The translations under genes were made by a program, and so were the position numbers. This document shows positions 21,406 to 49,439 of a DNA stretch of 64,000 nucleotides, one piece after another; the stretch's first letter is position 1; every line of letters starts with the position of its first letter. Source of the DNA: Zopfochytrium polystomum (lineage: Eukaryota > Chytridiomycota > Chytridiomycetes > Chytridiales > Chytridiaceae); NCBI GenBank assembly GCA_025765615.1, contig JAIVFJ010000111.1, positions 62,001-126,000 on the forward strand, read 5' to 3'. The notes below the pieces were generated by a model, which worked only from the letters and a program-made list of their open reading frames with translations, did no database searches and was not told the origin of the DNA.

Positions 21406-21478
21406 GGGCATATGGCGAAATGGTTACCGCGTTCGACTTCGGATCGAAAGATTGCAGGTTCGAGTCCTGCTATGCTCG
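21406..21478 (+). tRNA. tRNA-Arg (anticodon UCG)
   Basis: 73 nt fold into a cloverleaf. Acceptor GGGCATA pairs with TATGCTC (one G-U), discriminator G. D stem is GCG/CGC. Anticodon stem is TTCGA/TCGAA with loop CTTCGGA, so the anticodon is TCG, reading CGA codons. T arm is GCAGG-TTCGAGT-CCTGC. No intron. CCA is not encoded, as expected in eukaryotes. Oddity: no run of four or more T follows within 50 bp, so the Pol III terminator is unclear. Confidence 0.88.
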
Positions 21479-44065: not shown

Positions 44066-45950
44066 GAGCAAATCAGTGAAACAATATGCTACATTAACCT
44101 GGTAGTTGCTCTTTCTCTGGGGCATTGATTAAATTTAATTATATCTTCCAACTCCAGAAATTGGAAGAAAATCTTGGATTGGTCTTTAAAAATAGACGCA
44201 CAGTGCTGAAGATGGCCGCAGCAGGTAATATCTGCAGAGAATTGAAGGTAGAGTTTTTTCGTACATACAATCATAAAGCCAAAGATACTGTGGAAAATTG
44301 GAGATAAGGCTCAAAGGCATTGACTCAATTAGGTCGAAAACACCAATTTTTTTCAGCTATGCACCTGTGTTGCATTAATATAGTCCATGGGTGGGCAAAC
44401 CTCATAATCGGCTTACAAAATGTATACTGCCAGCAAGTATTTACAGGATAGTCATTTTGGGGTGAACTAATTTTTGGCAGGTTTCAATCCGTCTATCAGG
44501 CAACAGTTCACAACATAGTGTTTCGCTCCACAAATATTTTTCGGATGTTTCAACTGTTGTACACAGTCTTTTATCTTCTTCTTCCCGCCTGACATTTACC
44601 GTGGCGGTTATTCAGGTTCTGGCATTCAGCTGCATCAGTCAGTGTCCTTTGGTTCATTTCTGTGGTTTGCGCTGTCCAACTGGGGGTGGAGTAGCATAAA
44701 CCTTGCTCAAACAGTCTCTCTCTATATCGGGATCTGACCTTTCAATCCACCTTTTCATTTACCCTGTTTCCTTATTTGTACCTGTCTTACCCTCCCTTTT
44801 CCTTCATGTGTAAGTGGGAATGATTGCTGTTGAGGGCTGACATTCTGCTCACTTCTGAACAGCTGTAGGTGGGAGTAACTTTGTCACTCACAGGATCAGC
44901 GCAAGGGGAGGCCTTGTGTGTCCTGTGGTGGGCGTATCAACCCTCTTGAGCAAGGGCTGCCTACTCCGCTGGACTGAACTGTGAGGACGACAGGCCGCCA
45001 AGCCCTCCTCTTTCCTCCCTGTGATTCCAACCCTCTCCTATTTAAACTGCTGCCCCCCCTTCTTGTTGACTGTGAGAACTGTGCCTGAAGTCCCTTGTCT
45101 GCCCTTTTCTTCCTGACTGTGTGTATGAGCTGGGGGTTGCAGTCCCCTGGTGTGTGACAGGAGGGTTGGTTCCTCTTGGCCATCATGGCAGTGTGTTGGG
45201 TTCAATCCCCTGTGCACCTCACCATTCTGCATACTGTTTGGGTTGGACTAGGTAGGAGCCACTTGGTGATGGAAGGACAGATGGTAAATCTGTGGTGGTG
45301 CCTCTAGGTTCCTGTCAATACATCTAGTCAAATCCAGGTCTCTCAAGGTGATATGAATTATCTGGCTGGTCAGGTACTGCTGCAGGAATGGTCTCTCAGG
45401 TATGCCCCCATCTCCCTGTGTGTTGGCTCCTGTGGCCTCTGGTGGGCCTGGTCTTCACTGGGTTCAGACCCTCTTCCTCTCAGATTAATGCCTGTGATGT
45501 CATGGTGCCACACTTGTGTGTGGGAGTGGGTTTTAACCTTCCTTGCTTCTAAGATAGGGGATTCCTCTGGCCTGGTGAGGCAGATATCTGTATCCTAGTA
45601 GGATGAAGCAAGAAGAGTCCCCCGTGTGCCCCCTCCTTGGATTGAGTTGGAACCTCTCTTGGGAGTGAGACAAGATGTGTCTGGTTCTGTTAAGTGGAAA
45701 ACAGTTCTGGTTTGATCCAACAGGAATCTCTGCACACTAACTGTTCCTTGTGTTTGCCCTTTGTGTCCAACCCCCTCCAACTTAGGGCTTGTCTTTGGCA
45801 GAGAGGGAGCTGGTGCTCCAAGGTGGCGGCTCCAACAGGTTGGGACCTGGCCACTTTCCTCCCCACTCTTGCCTTCCCCCTTGGCTTCTGCCTTGGGAAG
45901 GAGCTGTCACAGATTGGTTGGTGCTGCCTTAGGCGCCCCCCTTTGTTGCC
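44066..45950. other. Unassigned sequence left of the polymerase/helicase module
   Basis: No gene recognised. A TATTTAAA (about 45038) and a tRNA B-box-like GGTTCAATCCC (about 45208) look like pieces of a mobile element. The composition changes sharply at about 45955, where the helicase frame starts. Confidence 0.4.
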
Positions 45951-47243
45951 CTAAGTCTCATTCCTTAGGACGAAGATGAGTCCGCGTGTAGCTCGATATG
46001 CAGCTGCTCCAAATATCGTGAGCAGCACGTTACGAGTTGTGACGGGTGGATGCTTGAGCCTGACTCTCAGTGATATGCACCTGGACGCGAAGAGCAGTTG
46101 ATTGTGTGCCGAGAATGAGTTGGATGAAGGAGGGAGCTGGAGTGCGTCTACGGTGAGCTCAATTGCTAGCATCCTACGTGCGAACCACCGTTGCAGAGTA
46201 TCCTTGCGAGGCCACCAGAGCGTGTTGCTGCCGAATATGCCTGTTGCGCTCACCTCAATTGCACCGTACTTCGTCGAGGACAGGTCCTCACCTCCAAGCA
46301 GCTTAATCGCCTCTTGATTGACATGCCCGTCAGTGAACTCTACGTCGCCATATGTCACGATCCTGTGCAGTGCAACATTGAGCTTGTCATCATCACTGAA
46401 CGCACGCTTCAAGTCACCAAGGTAGTTGTGCGACATGGCATAGGCGACACCGGGCAAGTTGGATATGATCGTCCTGATGGCTCGACTCTTGCCCTGGCCG
46501 CCTGAGCCATATAGGAAGAGCAGTCGTGGCCGTGACACTGGATCGACTAGTGCGTTGCCGATGACCCACATCACGAGGTCGAGATCGTGCTCAGGGATAG
46601 TACGCAGCAGATCATGCTCAGCAGCAGACTTCAAGTCCGTTCGCATGACACGCGGAATGAGAGGTATATGCAATGGGCAGATGCACAACGTTGACACTAT
46701 GACTCCGCCTACTCCATCCATGTCCGATATCGGTATCAAGTCCAGTGCAGGAGCGAACGTCAGTGTGTCAGGTGAAGTCGGAGTCACTGTCAGCCGACAT
46801 GTGGATATGCACACGCTCGTCGGAATACTATCAGCCCTGACTGACTTAGTCTGAATGAGCGGCAGGTAAGGTGCCATTGCTGCATCGTAACTGACTGGCA
46901 CATTGTCGACTCCCATGAGCATCGCAAGTTGCATTGTAGACTGAGGACTTCTGAGATGGCACTAGTAGCCCACGTTGCGGACATACATGTAACATGATGA
47001 CGACAGGATCACAGTGTGGAAGCTTCCGTACATAATACGCCTGATTGCCAGGAACTTCTTGTCGTCATTGAGGTACACTGCGAGATGCCCGCCCATGGGG
47101 AACGGATCTTCACGTGCCTCAGATCCATGGATGACAGCAGAGGGCGCCTGGTCATAGCCACTGAACTCGTTGAATATGTCCTCGTAGAAGCCTCCGGGAT
47201 TAGTCTCGGTAACCTCGCTGTGCGCGTCATAATGTGACATCAT
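45951..47243 (-). CDS. SF3 (D5-like) helicase, virus-type; one in-frame stop possibly removed by a 36-nt intron
   Basis: One frame reads leftward from MMSHYDAH (47243) to TAG at 45951. It holds Walker A YGSGGQGKSRAI (46485-46508), Walker B IVTYGDVEF (about 46336-46360), and a sensor-like block KYGAIEVSATGIFGSNTLW, then an Arg-rich ARRML. This is the superfamily 3 pattern, closest by memory to poxvirus/NCLDV D5 and P4-type primase-helicases. Known role: hexameric replicative helicase. A TAG at 46962-46964 interrupts the frame. A possible intron (46951-46986) with donor GTATGT, TACTAG and acceptor CAG would remove exactly that stop in phase, giving about 418 residues; alternatively it is a nonsense mutation. 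No primase domain is visible upstream. The 3' end meets a composition break, so the C terminus may be truncated. It is divergent from the DNA polymerase 42 bp away. Confidence 0.78.
46951..46986 (-). other. Candidate 36-nt spliceosomal intron in the helicase gene
   Basis: GTATGT...CTACTAG...TCTCAG, length divisible by three. Removal keeps phase and eliminates the only stop. Shorter than the other introns in this window (115-250 nt), so doubtful. Confidence 0.35.
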
Positions 47244-47285
47244 GTCAGGCGACTGGTGCCCGGCTAGCTAGCTACTCGTCGTACC
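47244..47285. promoter_or_regulatory. 42-bp bidirectional start region between helicase and polymerase
   Basis: Start codons of the two divergent genes face away from this gap. It contains the palindrome GCTAGCTAGC (47263-47272). No TATA box seen; leaders must be very short or overlap the opposite gene. Confidence 0.5.
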
Positions 47286-48990
47286 ATGGAGAGCTATCTG
47301 TGCATGCTCGATGCGGGCTGGTGCCCAGTATGCGTCGGCGCTGACGTGATGCATGACAGCTCGCAACCAGTTAATGTCGACTCGAATGGCAGGCCGTACG
47401 TGATGGTGAAGATGGCAAGAGATGACGACAGAGTGATGATACCCGTGACGCCTGTCCTATCAGCGCCGAAGGACTCGATCGTGCTGACTAAGCGCACCGC
47501 ACTAGAGCCAGGCAGTGACGTGGGCATCATTGGTGGCGCCATGAGTCCGCAGAACTTGACACGCATCGCCACTGTGCAGGGGAATTGTCCATTCACTCGA
47601 CCTGGCTATGGACTAGGCACTGAAGTCATGAAGCAAGATACTGTCCACATAGTCGGCATGGACATTGAGCAGACGACGTACCTGCGTAATGGCAAGTTCC
47701 CTTTGCCAACTGATCCATTGCTGACAATTGCCATAGTGACATGGGACAATCGTAGATATTGCGCATACGCCTACGGGACCGCTGACGTGTCCAAGTGTGC
47801 ACCTGATGACTCGTACCACATTGTCAAGTGCGCAAATTCAACTGAGTTAGCCGACTGGGCTTTGCAATGGATCATAGATGAGTCACCTGACTTCGTTGCA
47901 GTGCATAACGGCTTCGGGTTCGATGTGTCAAGATTGGCTGCTCATTGCTCTCCTGAGTACATGCACTGCTTCACTAGAGTCAATCTCGGCAAGGTGTCGA
48001 AGGGAGTCGATCTGTCCATACCTGGCGTTACAGTGGTCGACACGTGGTGGTACATCGACAAGCTCCATGGACCAGAGTACGCGTCCACATCACTGGATGC
48101 CATATGCAAGGCGAAAGGGATCGGAGGCAAGGTCAAGTCGCCACCGATGATGATAGATCCGTCTGACAGCAGCTACGACTACAGTGATATGATCGTGTGC
48201 AACATGTACGACGCCTATCTGCACATACGAGTTGCGCTCGACACTAAGTGCCTTGACGAGATCATCGCGATTGGAGTCCTGACCAAGTCCCCATTGGCAG
48301 ATTGTACGAGATTCATCAGTGGAACGCTCATGACTAATCTGACGTCAGCAGTGGCCCTTGATGCAGGCTGTGTCATGGACTGGTCAGCGGAGCCGTTACG
48401 TCAAGGCAAGTACCGAGGCGCAATAGTGCTAGATCCATCAGTTGGGTTTCACCGCAACGTATTCACACTGGACTTCAAGAGTCTGTATCCGAGTATCATG
48501 ATTGGGCTGAACATATCACCAGAGACTGTGACAACATTCGATGTGTATGATGACGACGTACGTGAACAATATGTCGAGCTCATGGGGCTGAGAGCGGATG
48601 GCAGCATGACATGGACGAGTGACGCGACCCTGCTACGCATGAACGATGTCATTGTCAGCATAGATCGTCGAGCTGAAGGCATTCAACCGAAGTTCCTGAA
48701 GTACCTGATGACTAAGCGGTCAGCGATCAAGAAGTCCAACGGAGGCAAGGACACTCCGCTCAGCTTCGCCATGAAGATCGCAGCCAACAGCACATATGGC
48801 GCATGCGGATCCAGCACGTCAGGCATGAGCACGCGCTATGGCGCAGCAAGTGTCACTGCTACAGGTAGAACTCTACTAAGTCTCGCTGTTGCCATAGCGA
48901 CTCTACTAGGCTTCGAAGCACTGTACGGAGACACGGATTCCATATTCCTGCGCATGCCTGAAGGCAGCAGGTTCACTGTGTACAACTACC
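47286..48990 (+). CDS. Family-B DNA polymerase, virus-like, truncated after motif C
   Basis: An uninterrupted frame runs from ATG 47286 (in-frame stop upstream at 47265) and ends at 49070, but polymerase similarity stops near 48990 (residue about 568). Exonuclease: Exo I VGMDIEQT (D126, E128), Exo II VHNGFGFDVSRL (D213), Exo III NMYDAYLHIRV (D309). Polymerase: motif A LDFKSLYPSIMIG (D396), motif B KIAANSTYGACG (K497), motif C YGDTDSIF (547-554). All catalytic residues are intact. About 90 residues separate motifs A and B, without the large insertion of protein-primed enzymes, so nucleic-acid priming is inferred. The thumb domain (about 200-300 residues) is missing: the last 27 codons and following DNA are unrelated T-rich sequence. 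It is shorter and arranged differently from host Pol delta/zeta. With the SF3 helicase it suggests an integrated large-DNA-virus or related element. Confidence 0.9.
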
Positions 48991-49439
48991 AAGTAATTCA
49001 GTCCCTTTGGCTTTGCCACTGGGGTTTCTCTGTGTCTTGGACCAGAGGCATTTTGCACTTTCTTTTGTGATTGTGCCACCTTTGTCACACTTTTCTTATG
49101 TTTCCCTTTTAGACTTGTGATAGGTGCTCTTTTTTGTTTAAAGAGTTTCTTTTGTGTTTGATGATGGGCTTTAGTAGACTCCAAATACATTTTCCTGTCT
49201 AGTGACCCCTAGACACCGTCTTTTGCCCTTTTCATTAGATAGGATTGGTATTTAGGCCATTGCTCTATTTCCACCTCCAGCCCAGGGTGAGGAGATTTAG
49301 AGAGCACAGTCTCACAGAACAGACAGCCAACCAAAGACAGAACAAGAACAACCCCCCCCCCCCCCCCACCTGTGACAAGGGTGCCTTGTGAGGCCTTGCC
49401 ATGTGAGACGCAAGTTCACCGGTGGCAGGAAATCTGTTC
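48991..49439. other. Unrelated T-rich flank of the module
   Basis: Abrupt change to T-rich sequence after 48990; includes an 18-C tract near 49351-49368. A Lys-rich frame on the minus strand (48906-49190) overlaps the polymerase end and is not called. Confidence 0.4.

What the first reader, a model, noticed from the sequence alone, without database searches (positions are those of the whole stretch)
45951..48990. Divergent family-B DNA polymerase and SF3 helicase: an endogenised viral replication module
The sequence directly shows PolB motifs Exo I-III and A, B, C in order with all catalytic acids, and beside it, in opposite orientation with 42 bp between ATGs, a D5-like SF3 helicase with Walker A GSGGQGKS and Walker B. 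This pair is the replication core of nucleocytoplasmic large DNA viruses and relatives and is not a host chromosomal arrangement. By eye the module has about half G+C and different codon choice from both the G+C-rich host genes and the A+T-rich flanks. Its ends are abrupt and the polymerase lacks its thumb. The compact polymerase N terminus (Exo I at residue 126) and motif spacing without TPR2-type insertion argue against a Polinton-type, protein-primed enzyme. It may represent an undescribed fungal DNA virus or virus-derived mobile element.
Basis: partly seen in the sequence, partly recalled or inferred. Interest (0 to 1): 0.88.

Follow-up and report, generated by a model that had tools for sequence, protein, structure and literature searches.

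The report
Fragment of a chytrid virus-like element
A broken 3-kb piece of a DNA virus-like element, carrying parts of its DNA polymerase and helicase genes, sits inside a repeat in a chytrid fungus genome, and fuller copies elsewhere in that genome suggest an undescribed group of elements that encode their own DNA-copying and RNA-making enzymes.

Summary
A family-B DNA polymerase (PolB) and a D5-like SF3 helicase lie head to head, 42 bp between ATGs. The borders are exact: a 3,019-bp insert (45968-48986) in one copy of a dispersed repeat that runs on uninterrupted at 24 other listed loci. TA stands at both junctions. Both ends cut through genes and the helicase holds an in-frame stop: a dead captured fragment. 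The missing thumb is where the piece ends.

The genome matches Zopfochytrium polystomum. It has ten PolB loci of this family, eight with the divergent helicase pair. The fullest (C175) is an 18-20-kb block with PolB, helicase, RPB2-like and RPB1-like RNA polymerase subunits, a possible capping enzyme and unknown genes. C175 and C384 genes differ with dN/dS 0.01-0.11, so they diverged as working elements. The PolB clade also holds Clydaea vesicula and five proteins of unnamed source, is separate from host alpha/delta, and no member was found in IMG/VR. No capsid gene was recognised. Best reading: an undescribed group of virus-like elements that works like yeast cytoplasmic virus-like elements but with different replication genes. 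NCLDV membership is not shown.

The parts
45345..45967 (.). Left half of the dispersed host repeat that received the insert (its left end was not determined)
45968..48986 (.). Captured element fragment, 3,019 bp, TA at both junctions, no terminal inverted repeat seen
   Evidence: Uninterrupted copies of the repeat at C3, C73 and C105 read straight across the insertion point
45951..46934 (-). C part of the D5-like SF3 helicase (Walker A GSGGQGKS); its last 17 bases come from the repeat and the gene's own C-terminus (after about residue 414 of 475 of the C175 copy) is missing
   Evidence: about 30% identical to the C175 and C374 helicases
46962..47243 (-). N part of the same helicase gene, same frame, separated from the C part by an in-frame stop; true start at 47243
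47244..47285 (.). 42-bp divergent intergenic stretch between the helicase and PolB start codons; no AT box of the kind seen in the C175/C374 lineages
47286..48986 (+). PolB, residues 1-567 of the element gene: exonuclease domain and palm to just past motif C; thumb absent
   Evidence: Pfam DNA_pol_B 6.5e-31; alignment with full-length relatives; 41% identical to the C175 copy over 505 aligned positions
48987..49070 (+). End of the PolB open frame that is repeat sequence, not polymerase (residues 568-594 and stop)
   Evidence: 61 of the 79 listed protein matches in the genome cover only residues 549-594
48987..49320 (.). Right half of the dispersed host repeat
   Evidence: 95-97% identical to uninterrupted copies

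Best explanation
The module is a dead 3,019-bp fragment of a replicating virus-like DNA element, captured at a double-strand break inside a host repeat by end joining (inferred from TA at both junctions, no inverted repeats and mid-gene ends). The parent belongs to a diverse group of elements, about 20 kb or more, present as many full or partial copies in Zopfochytrium polystomum. From the fuller copies: PolB copies the DNA with the D5-like SF3 helicase as its unwinding motor (shown: the genes and their conserved divergent pairing; inferred: activity). A two-subunit RNA polymerase (RPB1-like, RPB2-like) and a possible capping enzyme transcribe its genes from AT-rich boxes about 18-53 bp upstream of start codons (shown: RPB genes, box enrichment at a minority of genes; inferred: capping, promoter role, cytoplasmic site). 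Some lineages carry a LysM/chitin-binding/GH18 protein as cargo. Copies circulated outside the chromosomes under purifying selection (inferred from dN/dS) and were integrated repeatedly, then decayed.
For: Insert in a repeat with exact borders. Ten PolB loci, divergent helicase pair in 8 of 10. RPB2-like: Pfam Rpb2_6 4.8e-15; RPB1-like: Rpb1_2 1.2e-8; many matches of each in the genome. Gene order shared by C175 and C374, whose compared proteins are only about 19-35% identical. dN/dS 0.058 PolB, 0.106 RPB2 N part, 0.014 helicase C part, 0.057 capping-like, 0.089 and 0.023 for two unknown ORFs between C175 and C384 at dS 0.18-0.26. PolB clade of window, C175, C48, Clydaea and five unnamed-source proteins supported at 100 in three trees. 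AT boxes at 4 of 11 genes in C175/C384 (P 2.7e-7) and 4 of 11 in C374 (P 2e-5).
Against: No capsid, packaging ATPase or protease recognised in the element ORFs scanned. The capping assignment rests on eye-read motifs and a sub-threshold Pfam match (E = 0.082); a profile against the PDB found nothing relevant. Free DNA molecules are not shown; the contigs of the relatives outside this genome could not be fetched, so their gene content beyond PolB is unknown. The helicase profile found no protein at E <= 0.01 among the 8,000 candidates scored, not even one of this genome. The box patterns were chosen after seeing the sequences, PolB and helicase share one box, and 7 of 11 genes in each set lack it, so those P values are optimistic. 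The window copy shows no box. Branching inside the clade is only moderately supported.
Confidence: 0.8

Rival explanations
1. Remains of a small or divergent member of the Nucleocytoviricota (or mirusviruses) in the strict sense, with a capsid too diverged to see.
For: PolB, D5-like helicase, RPB1, RPB2 and a capping-like gene are an NCLDV-type set (recalled); best PDB profile hit of the helicase is 'putative primase C962R', which I recall as the African swine fever virus primase-helicase, not significant (E = 0.031). One NCLDV capsid fragment exists in the genome at C206.
Against: That fragment is on a contig where no element gene was found; element ORFs scanned have no capsid match. The RPB2-like protein is only about 830 aa and its best PDB hits are archaeal and RNA polymerase I, with poxvirus at 2.9e-5. 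No primase match on the 474-504-residue helicases; PHROG primase matches cover the helicase part only.
Confidence: 0.2
2. A member of the yeast-type cytoplasmic linear plasmids (killer-plasmid VLEs) that entered chytrids.
For: Own multisubunit RNA polymerase and possible capping enzyme; AT-rich boxes at a distance like that of the VLE upstream element (20-40 nt before the start, PMC6211774 section 4); cargo with LysM, chitin-binding and GH18 domains, an architecture I recall for the K. lactis toxin alpha subunit.
Against: VLEs are thought to replicate by a terminal protein like adenoviruses and phi29 (PMC6211774); this PolB's best profile matches are archaeal PolB, Pol delta and Pol alpha and DNA_pol_B_2 stays below cut-off. 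The VLE helicase is superfamily II (PMC6211774); here it is D5-like. C64 joins the sides of RPB1 and the capping-like gene that face outward in C175, which suits a circular map or concatemer better than fixed linear ends.
Confidence: 0.1
3. A transposon that moved by itself into TA (TA target duplication) rather than an end-joining capture.
For: TA stands at both junctions.
Against: No terminal inverted repeat or transposase seen, both ends inside genes, no near copy of this lineage in the genome (next PolB 36-45% identical); two bases are easily microhomology.
Confidence: 0.05
4. Assembly misjoin or contaminant.
For: The window copy has no near copy in the genome.
Against: Insert splits one native repeat cleanly; nine other contigs carry relatives, several beside or interrupted by retroelement-like frames (by eye); no near relative among the best 80 of 572 matches in GTDB genomes or found in IMG/VR.
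Confidence: 0.03

Closest known systems
Yeast cytoplasmic virus-like elements (pGKL1/pGKL2 of Kluyveromyces lactis)
   Same: Small DNA element of fungi with its own PolB, multisubunit RNA polymerase, possible capping enzyme, a short box upstream of genes, and (some lineages) a secreted-type LysM/chitin-binding/GH18 cargo
   Different: PolB of archaeal/delta/alpha type, D5-like SF3 instead of SF2 helicase, RPB1- and RPB2-like genes separate rather than the ORF6/ORF7 split, not AT-rich (9.9-kb stretches L009, L012, L040 at 46-47% G+C, against about 74% AT in pGKL, PMC6211774), many integrated copies, map compatible with a circle
Nucleocytoviricota and endogenous giant viral elements
   Same: PolB, D5-like SF3, RPB1, RPB2, capping-type gene set; endogenised, invaded by retroelements
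   Different: About 20 kb, no recognised capsid or A32 ATPase, helicase without recognised primase part, RPB2-like protein of about 830 aa
Polintons/Mavericks and protein-primed mitochondrial plasmids
   Same: Integrated elements with a family-B polymerase
   Different: No DNA_pol_B_2 match above cut-off, no integrase or capsid recognised, only about 40 residues between motifs B and C, too short for a TPR2 insert (spacing recalled)
DNA-directed DNA polymerase 'delta' of Clydaea vesicula (P0002) and unnamed-source PolBs P0003-P0007
   Same: Same PolB clade, 35-41% identical to the C175 copy over 75-98% of it, longest contigs 6.7-26.3 kb
   Different: Only PolB could be seen; gene content of those contigs unknown. 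The delta name does not fit the trees

Membership tests
Nucleocytoviricota | Double-jelly-roll major capsid protein | tested here: inconclusive
   PF04451 finds one fragment in the whole genome, C206:50226-50384, not at an element locus; unknown ORFs have no capsid match in Pfam, PHROGs or PDB; no fold prediction finished
Nucleocytoviricota | PolB of the NCLDV clade | tested here: inconclusive
   Own clade, support 100; the single clear delta-like viral PolB (L183) sits with host delta, but no proper NCLDV set was at hand
Nucleocytoviricota | D5-type primase-helicase | tested here: inconclusive
   Helicase part supported (phrog_1156 1.3e-8); no primase match on the 474-504-residue proteins
Yeast cytoplasmic VLE | Protein-primed PolB with terminal protein | tested here: not met
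   Best PDB profile hits are archaeal PolB, Pol delta and Pol alpha; DNA_pol_B_2 below cut-off. Priming itself was not tested
Yeast cytoplasmic VLE | Own multisubunit RNA polymerase plus capping enzyme | tested here: inconclusive
   RPB2-like 4.8e-15 and RPB1-like 1.2e-8; capping enzyme only E = 0.082, no relevant PDB match
Yeast cytoplasmic VLE | Linear molecule with terminal inverted repeats, cytoplasmic | not testable with these tools
   Only integrated copies available; the C64 and C175 arrangements suit a circular or concatemeric map
Polinton/Maverick | Protein-primed PolB, integrase, terminal inverted repeats | tested here: not met
   PolB type as above; no terminal inverted repeat at the window insert; no integrase match among the element ORFs scanned. 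The ends of the fuller copies were not defined
Host Pol alpha/delta | Nested in the eukaryotic alpha/delta clade | tested here: not met
   Clade separate from host alpha and delta, 100/95 and 100/99; zeta and epsilon not included
SF3 helicase | Walker A GxxGxGK[ST], SF3 motif C with S/T-N, arginine finger (motifs recalled) | tested here: met
   Invariant G143, G145, G146, G148, K149; S236-N237; W250-F251 and R253-R254 across three copies; profile support

The most novel reading that the evidence does not exclude
The window piece is a fossil of a family- or order-level lineage of extrachromosomal DNA elements of chytrids, with relatives in unnamed public sequence sets: a roughly 20-25-kb, perhaps circular molecule that replicates with a non-protein-primed type of PolB and a primase-less D5 helicase, transcribes itself with a compact two-subunit RNA polymerase and capping enzyme from AT-rich promoters, and in some lineages carries a killer-toxin-like chitinase cargo, so that giant-virus-type and killer-plasmid-type gene sets meet in one element.
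Probability: 0.45. Interest if true: 0.88.

Novelty: new variant of a known kind. Interest (0 to 1): 0.74.

Why it matters
To my knowledge DNA viruses and autonomous DNA elements of chytrids are little known. A compact element with its own DNA polymerase, SF3 helicase and two-subunit RNA polymerase would give another case of self-transcribing DNA elements in fungi next to the yeast killer plasmids, and a test of whether such transcription modules came from large viruses or the reverse. Genes that diverged under dN/dS near 0.05 suggest that working molecules existed after the C175 and C384 lineages split, and may still be found in culturable chytrids.

Tried and rejected
Rejected: a transposon inserted into PolB (my first reading, notes). 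The flanks proved to be the two halves of one repeat that is whole elsewhere, so the PolB piece was inserted into the repeat.

Led nowhere: helicase alignment against 5.8 billion proteins (nothing at E <= 0.01); the unknown protein next to the helicase (only its own genome); PDB profile searches of capping-like and unknown proteins; viral-contig scans with RPB2, host Pol alpha and P0014 (none confirmed); PolB structure job (ticket, not finished), so no fold search was made. IMG/VR scan: 51 loci, mostly 20-33% best segments; two (L092, L095) have 47-48% segments but E only 4e-5 and 3e-4; L095 falls outside the clade, L092 is among the 10 loci not put in that tree. Ten paper searches listed no paper that, by title or abstract, describes these elements in chytrids; no preprints are held.

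Unresolved: nearest kin of the window PolB inside the clade, and the nearest neighbour of the clade (differ; one search puts host alpha/delta beside it at 82/86, one search does not).
Full report
WHAT IS THERE. The window holds a PolB frame at 47286-49070 (+) and a helicase frame at 45951-46934 (-). PolB matches Pfam DNA_pol_B at E = 6.5e-31 and carries the exonuclease and palm motifs with all seven catalytic acids; the only motif change I saw is C305 where the relatives have the Exo III tyrosine.

BORDERS. DNA searches with each flank list 40 places each, the cap, the window included. Comparing the two lists by hand, 24 other loci carry both halves abutting, 21 with a 2-3-bp overlap and 3 with a 3-bp gap. 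Three of them (C3, C73, C105) were fetched and aligned: the repeat runs on from the base matching window 45967 to the base matching 48987, sharing TA. So 45968-48986, 3,019 bp, was inserted into a copy of a dispersed repeat. I saw no terminal inverted repeat. The insert ends inside both genes: helicase after about residue 414 of 475 of the C175 copy, PolB after residue 567. The last 27 residues of the PolB frame are repeat; 61 of the 79 listed protein matches of the PolB query in the genome cover only residues 549-594. I read this as end-joining capture of a fragment; that step is inference.

HOST. The assembly is 80 Mb in 761 contigs.

RELATIVES IN THE GENOME. PolB of this family lies at ten loci: C111 (window), C175, C384, C374, C94, C104, C319, C48, C70, C270. 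In a 9.9-kb stretch around each of the nine others and in the window, a helicase match at E <= 1e-3 lies divergently beside PolB at 8 of 10; none was found at C48 and C270. The C175 locus holds, in uninterrupted frames: RPB1-like (Pfam Rpb1_2, 1.2e-8), three unknown ORFs, a 446-aa ORF, RPB2-like (Rpb2_6 4.8e-15, Rpb2_7 2.1e-6 below its cut-off), PolB (761 codons), helicase (475), a 106-aa ORF, an ORF of 597 codons or more, and a 630-codon ORF with eye-read guanylyltransferase-like (CDGVIAI...YRIK...TVDLKV) and methyltransferase-like (VDIGSG) motifs but only a sub-threshold Pfam mRNA_cap_C match (E = 0.082) and no relevant PDB profile match; beyond it the frames are broken. From the small ORF before RPB1 to the last clear frame this is about 18-20 kb. 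C374 shows the same order in reverse, interrupted by a Ty3-type LTR retroelement (type by eye); the pairing of the unknown ORFs is by position and size, and only some pairs were aligned (19-27% identity). RPB1-, RPB2- and capping-like queries have 17, 23 and 12 matches in the genome, among them pieces and perhaps host RNA polymerase genes, not sorted out here.

THEY WERE WORKING ELEMENTS. C175 and C384 are about 94-95% identical in DNA. Between them dN/dS is 0.058 (PolB, 760 codons), 0.106 (RPB2 N part, 326), 0.014 (helicase C part, 403), 0.057 (capping-like, 614), 0.089 (u597, 458) and 0.023 (u106, 106), with dS 0.18-0.26; two shorter C374/C94 pairs give 0.136 (87 codons) and 0.046 (116). These are all the pairs computed. 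Selection on each of them means divergence while replicating, not after integration. Some copies are now broken: the C384 RPB2 frame runs into a retroelement-like frame and its helicase is split.

KINSHIP. The protein search (8,000 candidates scored) gave 14 PolBs at E <= 1e-5: one of this genome, Clydaea vesicula (P0002), five without an organism name (P0003-P0007, longest contigs 6.7-21.4 kb), then seven at 22-30%. Trees: with 41 of 51 IMG/VR PolBs, the ten-row clade has SH-aLRT 100; with 19 IMG/VR, 25 prokaryote PolBs and host alpha and delta, the nine-row clade has 100/95; with four NSxYGF viral candidates added and other subsets, 100/99 (two of these four sit on a branch of 5 and one on a branch of 6 and say little; the fourth, L183, groups with host delta). 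Subsets were taken by locus number to keep run time down. The neighbour of the clade differs: weakly beside host alpha/delta (82/86), elsewhere (92/77). The C48, C175 and window copies do not form one clade of their own in any of the three, with moderate support inside (for instance 80-95), which together with identities of about 45% or less among most copies suggests that several lineages entered this genome. PDB profile hits are an archaeal PolB (1s5j, source recalled) 2.7e-51, Pol delta 2.7e-50, alpha about 1e-41, DNA polymerase F8 (poxvirus, recalled) about 8e-33. IMG/VR has no match to a family-diagnostic peptide pattern nor to RPB2 words; its PolBs that were treed lie outside the clade. 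GTDB genomes give only 23-37% segments (best 80 of 572 kept).

TRANSCRIPTION SIGNALS. Upstream of start codons, TAAAAWTTTA occurs at 4 of 11 genes of C175/C384 (background 0.5% of random 60-mers) and GTTTTAAAA at 4 of 11 of C374 (background 1.6%). PolB and helicase share one box between them, so these are not all independent, and the patterns were picked after reading the sequences. The window pair has none.

CARGO. Between RPB1 (C64:60875-62551) and the capping-like gene (C64:69214-70977) lies a 969-codon ORF with two LysM stretches, a chitin-binding and a GH18 domain (6.6e-50). Copies of 76-98% identity lie beside element genes at C491 (under 100 bp from RPB1, as in C64), C48 and C528; C326 has only a weak, overlapping RPB2 match and is not counted; others (C82, C311, C94:147-148k, C263, C10 and smaller pieces) were not examined for neighbours; the remaining matches are 28% (C320, C230) and one 65-residue stretch (C115). 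The architecture is one I recall for killer-toxin alpha subunits. A 61%-identical small ORF lies next to RPB1 in C175 and before the capping-like gene in C64; together the two loci read like two arcs of one circle or concatemer, an inference. No PolB or RPB2 match was listed on C64.

LITERATURE. PMC6211774: abstract and sections 4, 11, 12 read. PMC10328495, PMC7482067 and PMC5784728: passages only. All others: listings. The ten searches named in Tried and rejected listed no description of these elements.

VERDICT. Ordinary as a locus (a captured fossil fragment), unusual in what it points to: an undescribed, diverse group of self-replicating, self-transcribing DNA elements of chytrids whose virion, if any, is unknown.

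Noticed in passing
G000:C206:50226-50384: One 53-residue fragment of an NCLDV-type major capsid protein (PF04451, E = 2.6e-20), not at any locus of the PolB elements; its surroundings could not be fetched.
   Followed up: no
G000, 30 places (e.g. C52:72674, C382:20472, C63:294802): A second, abundant family with a DUF5906 (SF3-type, recalled) domain, 30 matches scored, best E = 5.8e-9; of these only C319:39916 lies in a stretch fetched here.
   Followed up: no
L097:150-3056 (C64) and C491:23164-25461: Element-linked LysM/chitin-binding/GH18 ORF with similar pieces at about 14 other contigs, several broken.
   Followed up: partly
L039:1594-5978 (C374): Large Ser/Thr-rich, secreted-looking ORFs (by eye) in the position of cargo next to the capping-like gene; no Pfam match above cut-off.
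   Followed up: partly
window 45968-45983: The first bases of the insert form a small inverted repeat with 4-bp arms (GGAC...GTCC), likely chance; no Rfam family at gathering score there.
   Followed up: no
G000:C491:21393-31600: Two different RPB1-like genes (28% and 94% to C175), a GH18 ORF and an RPB2-like gene (34% to C175) within about 10 kb: perhaps nested or recombined element copies.
   Followed up: no
window 21406-21478: tRNA gene, the only Rfam match in the window.
   Followed up: no
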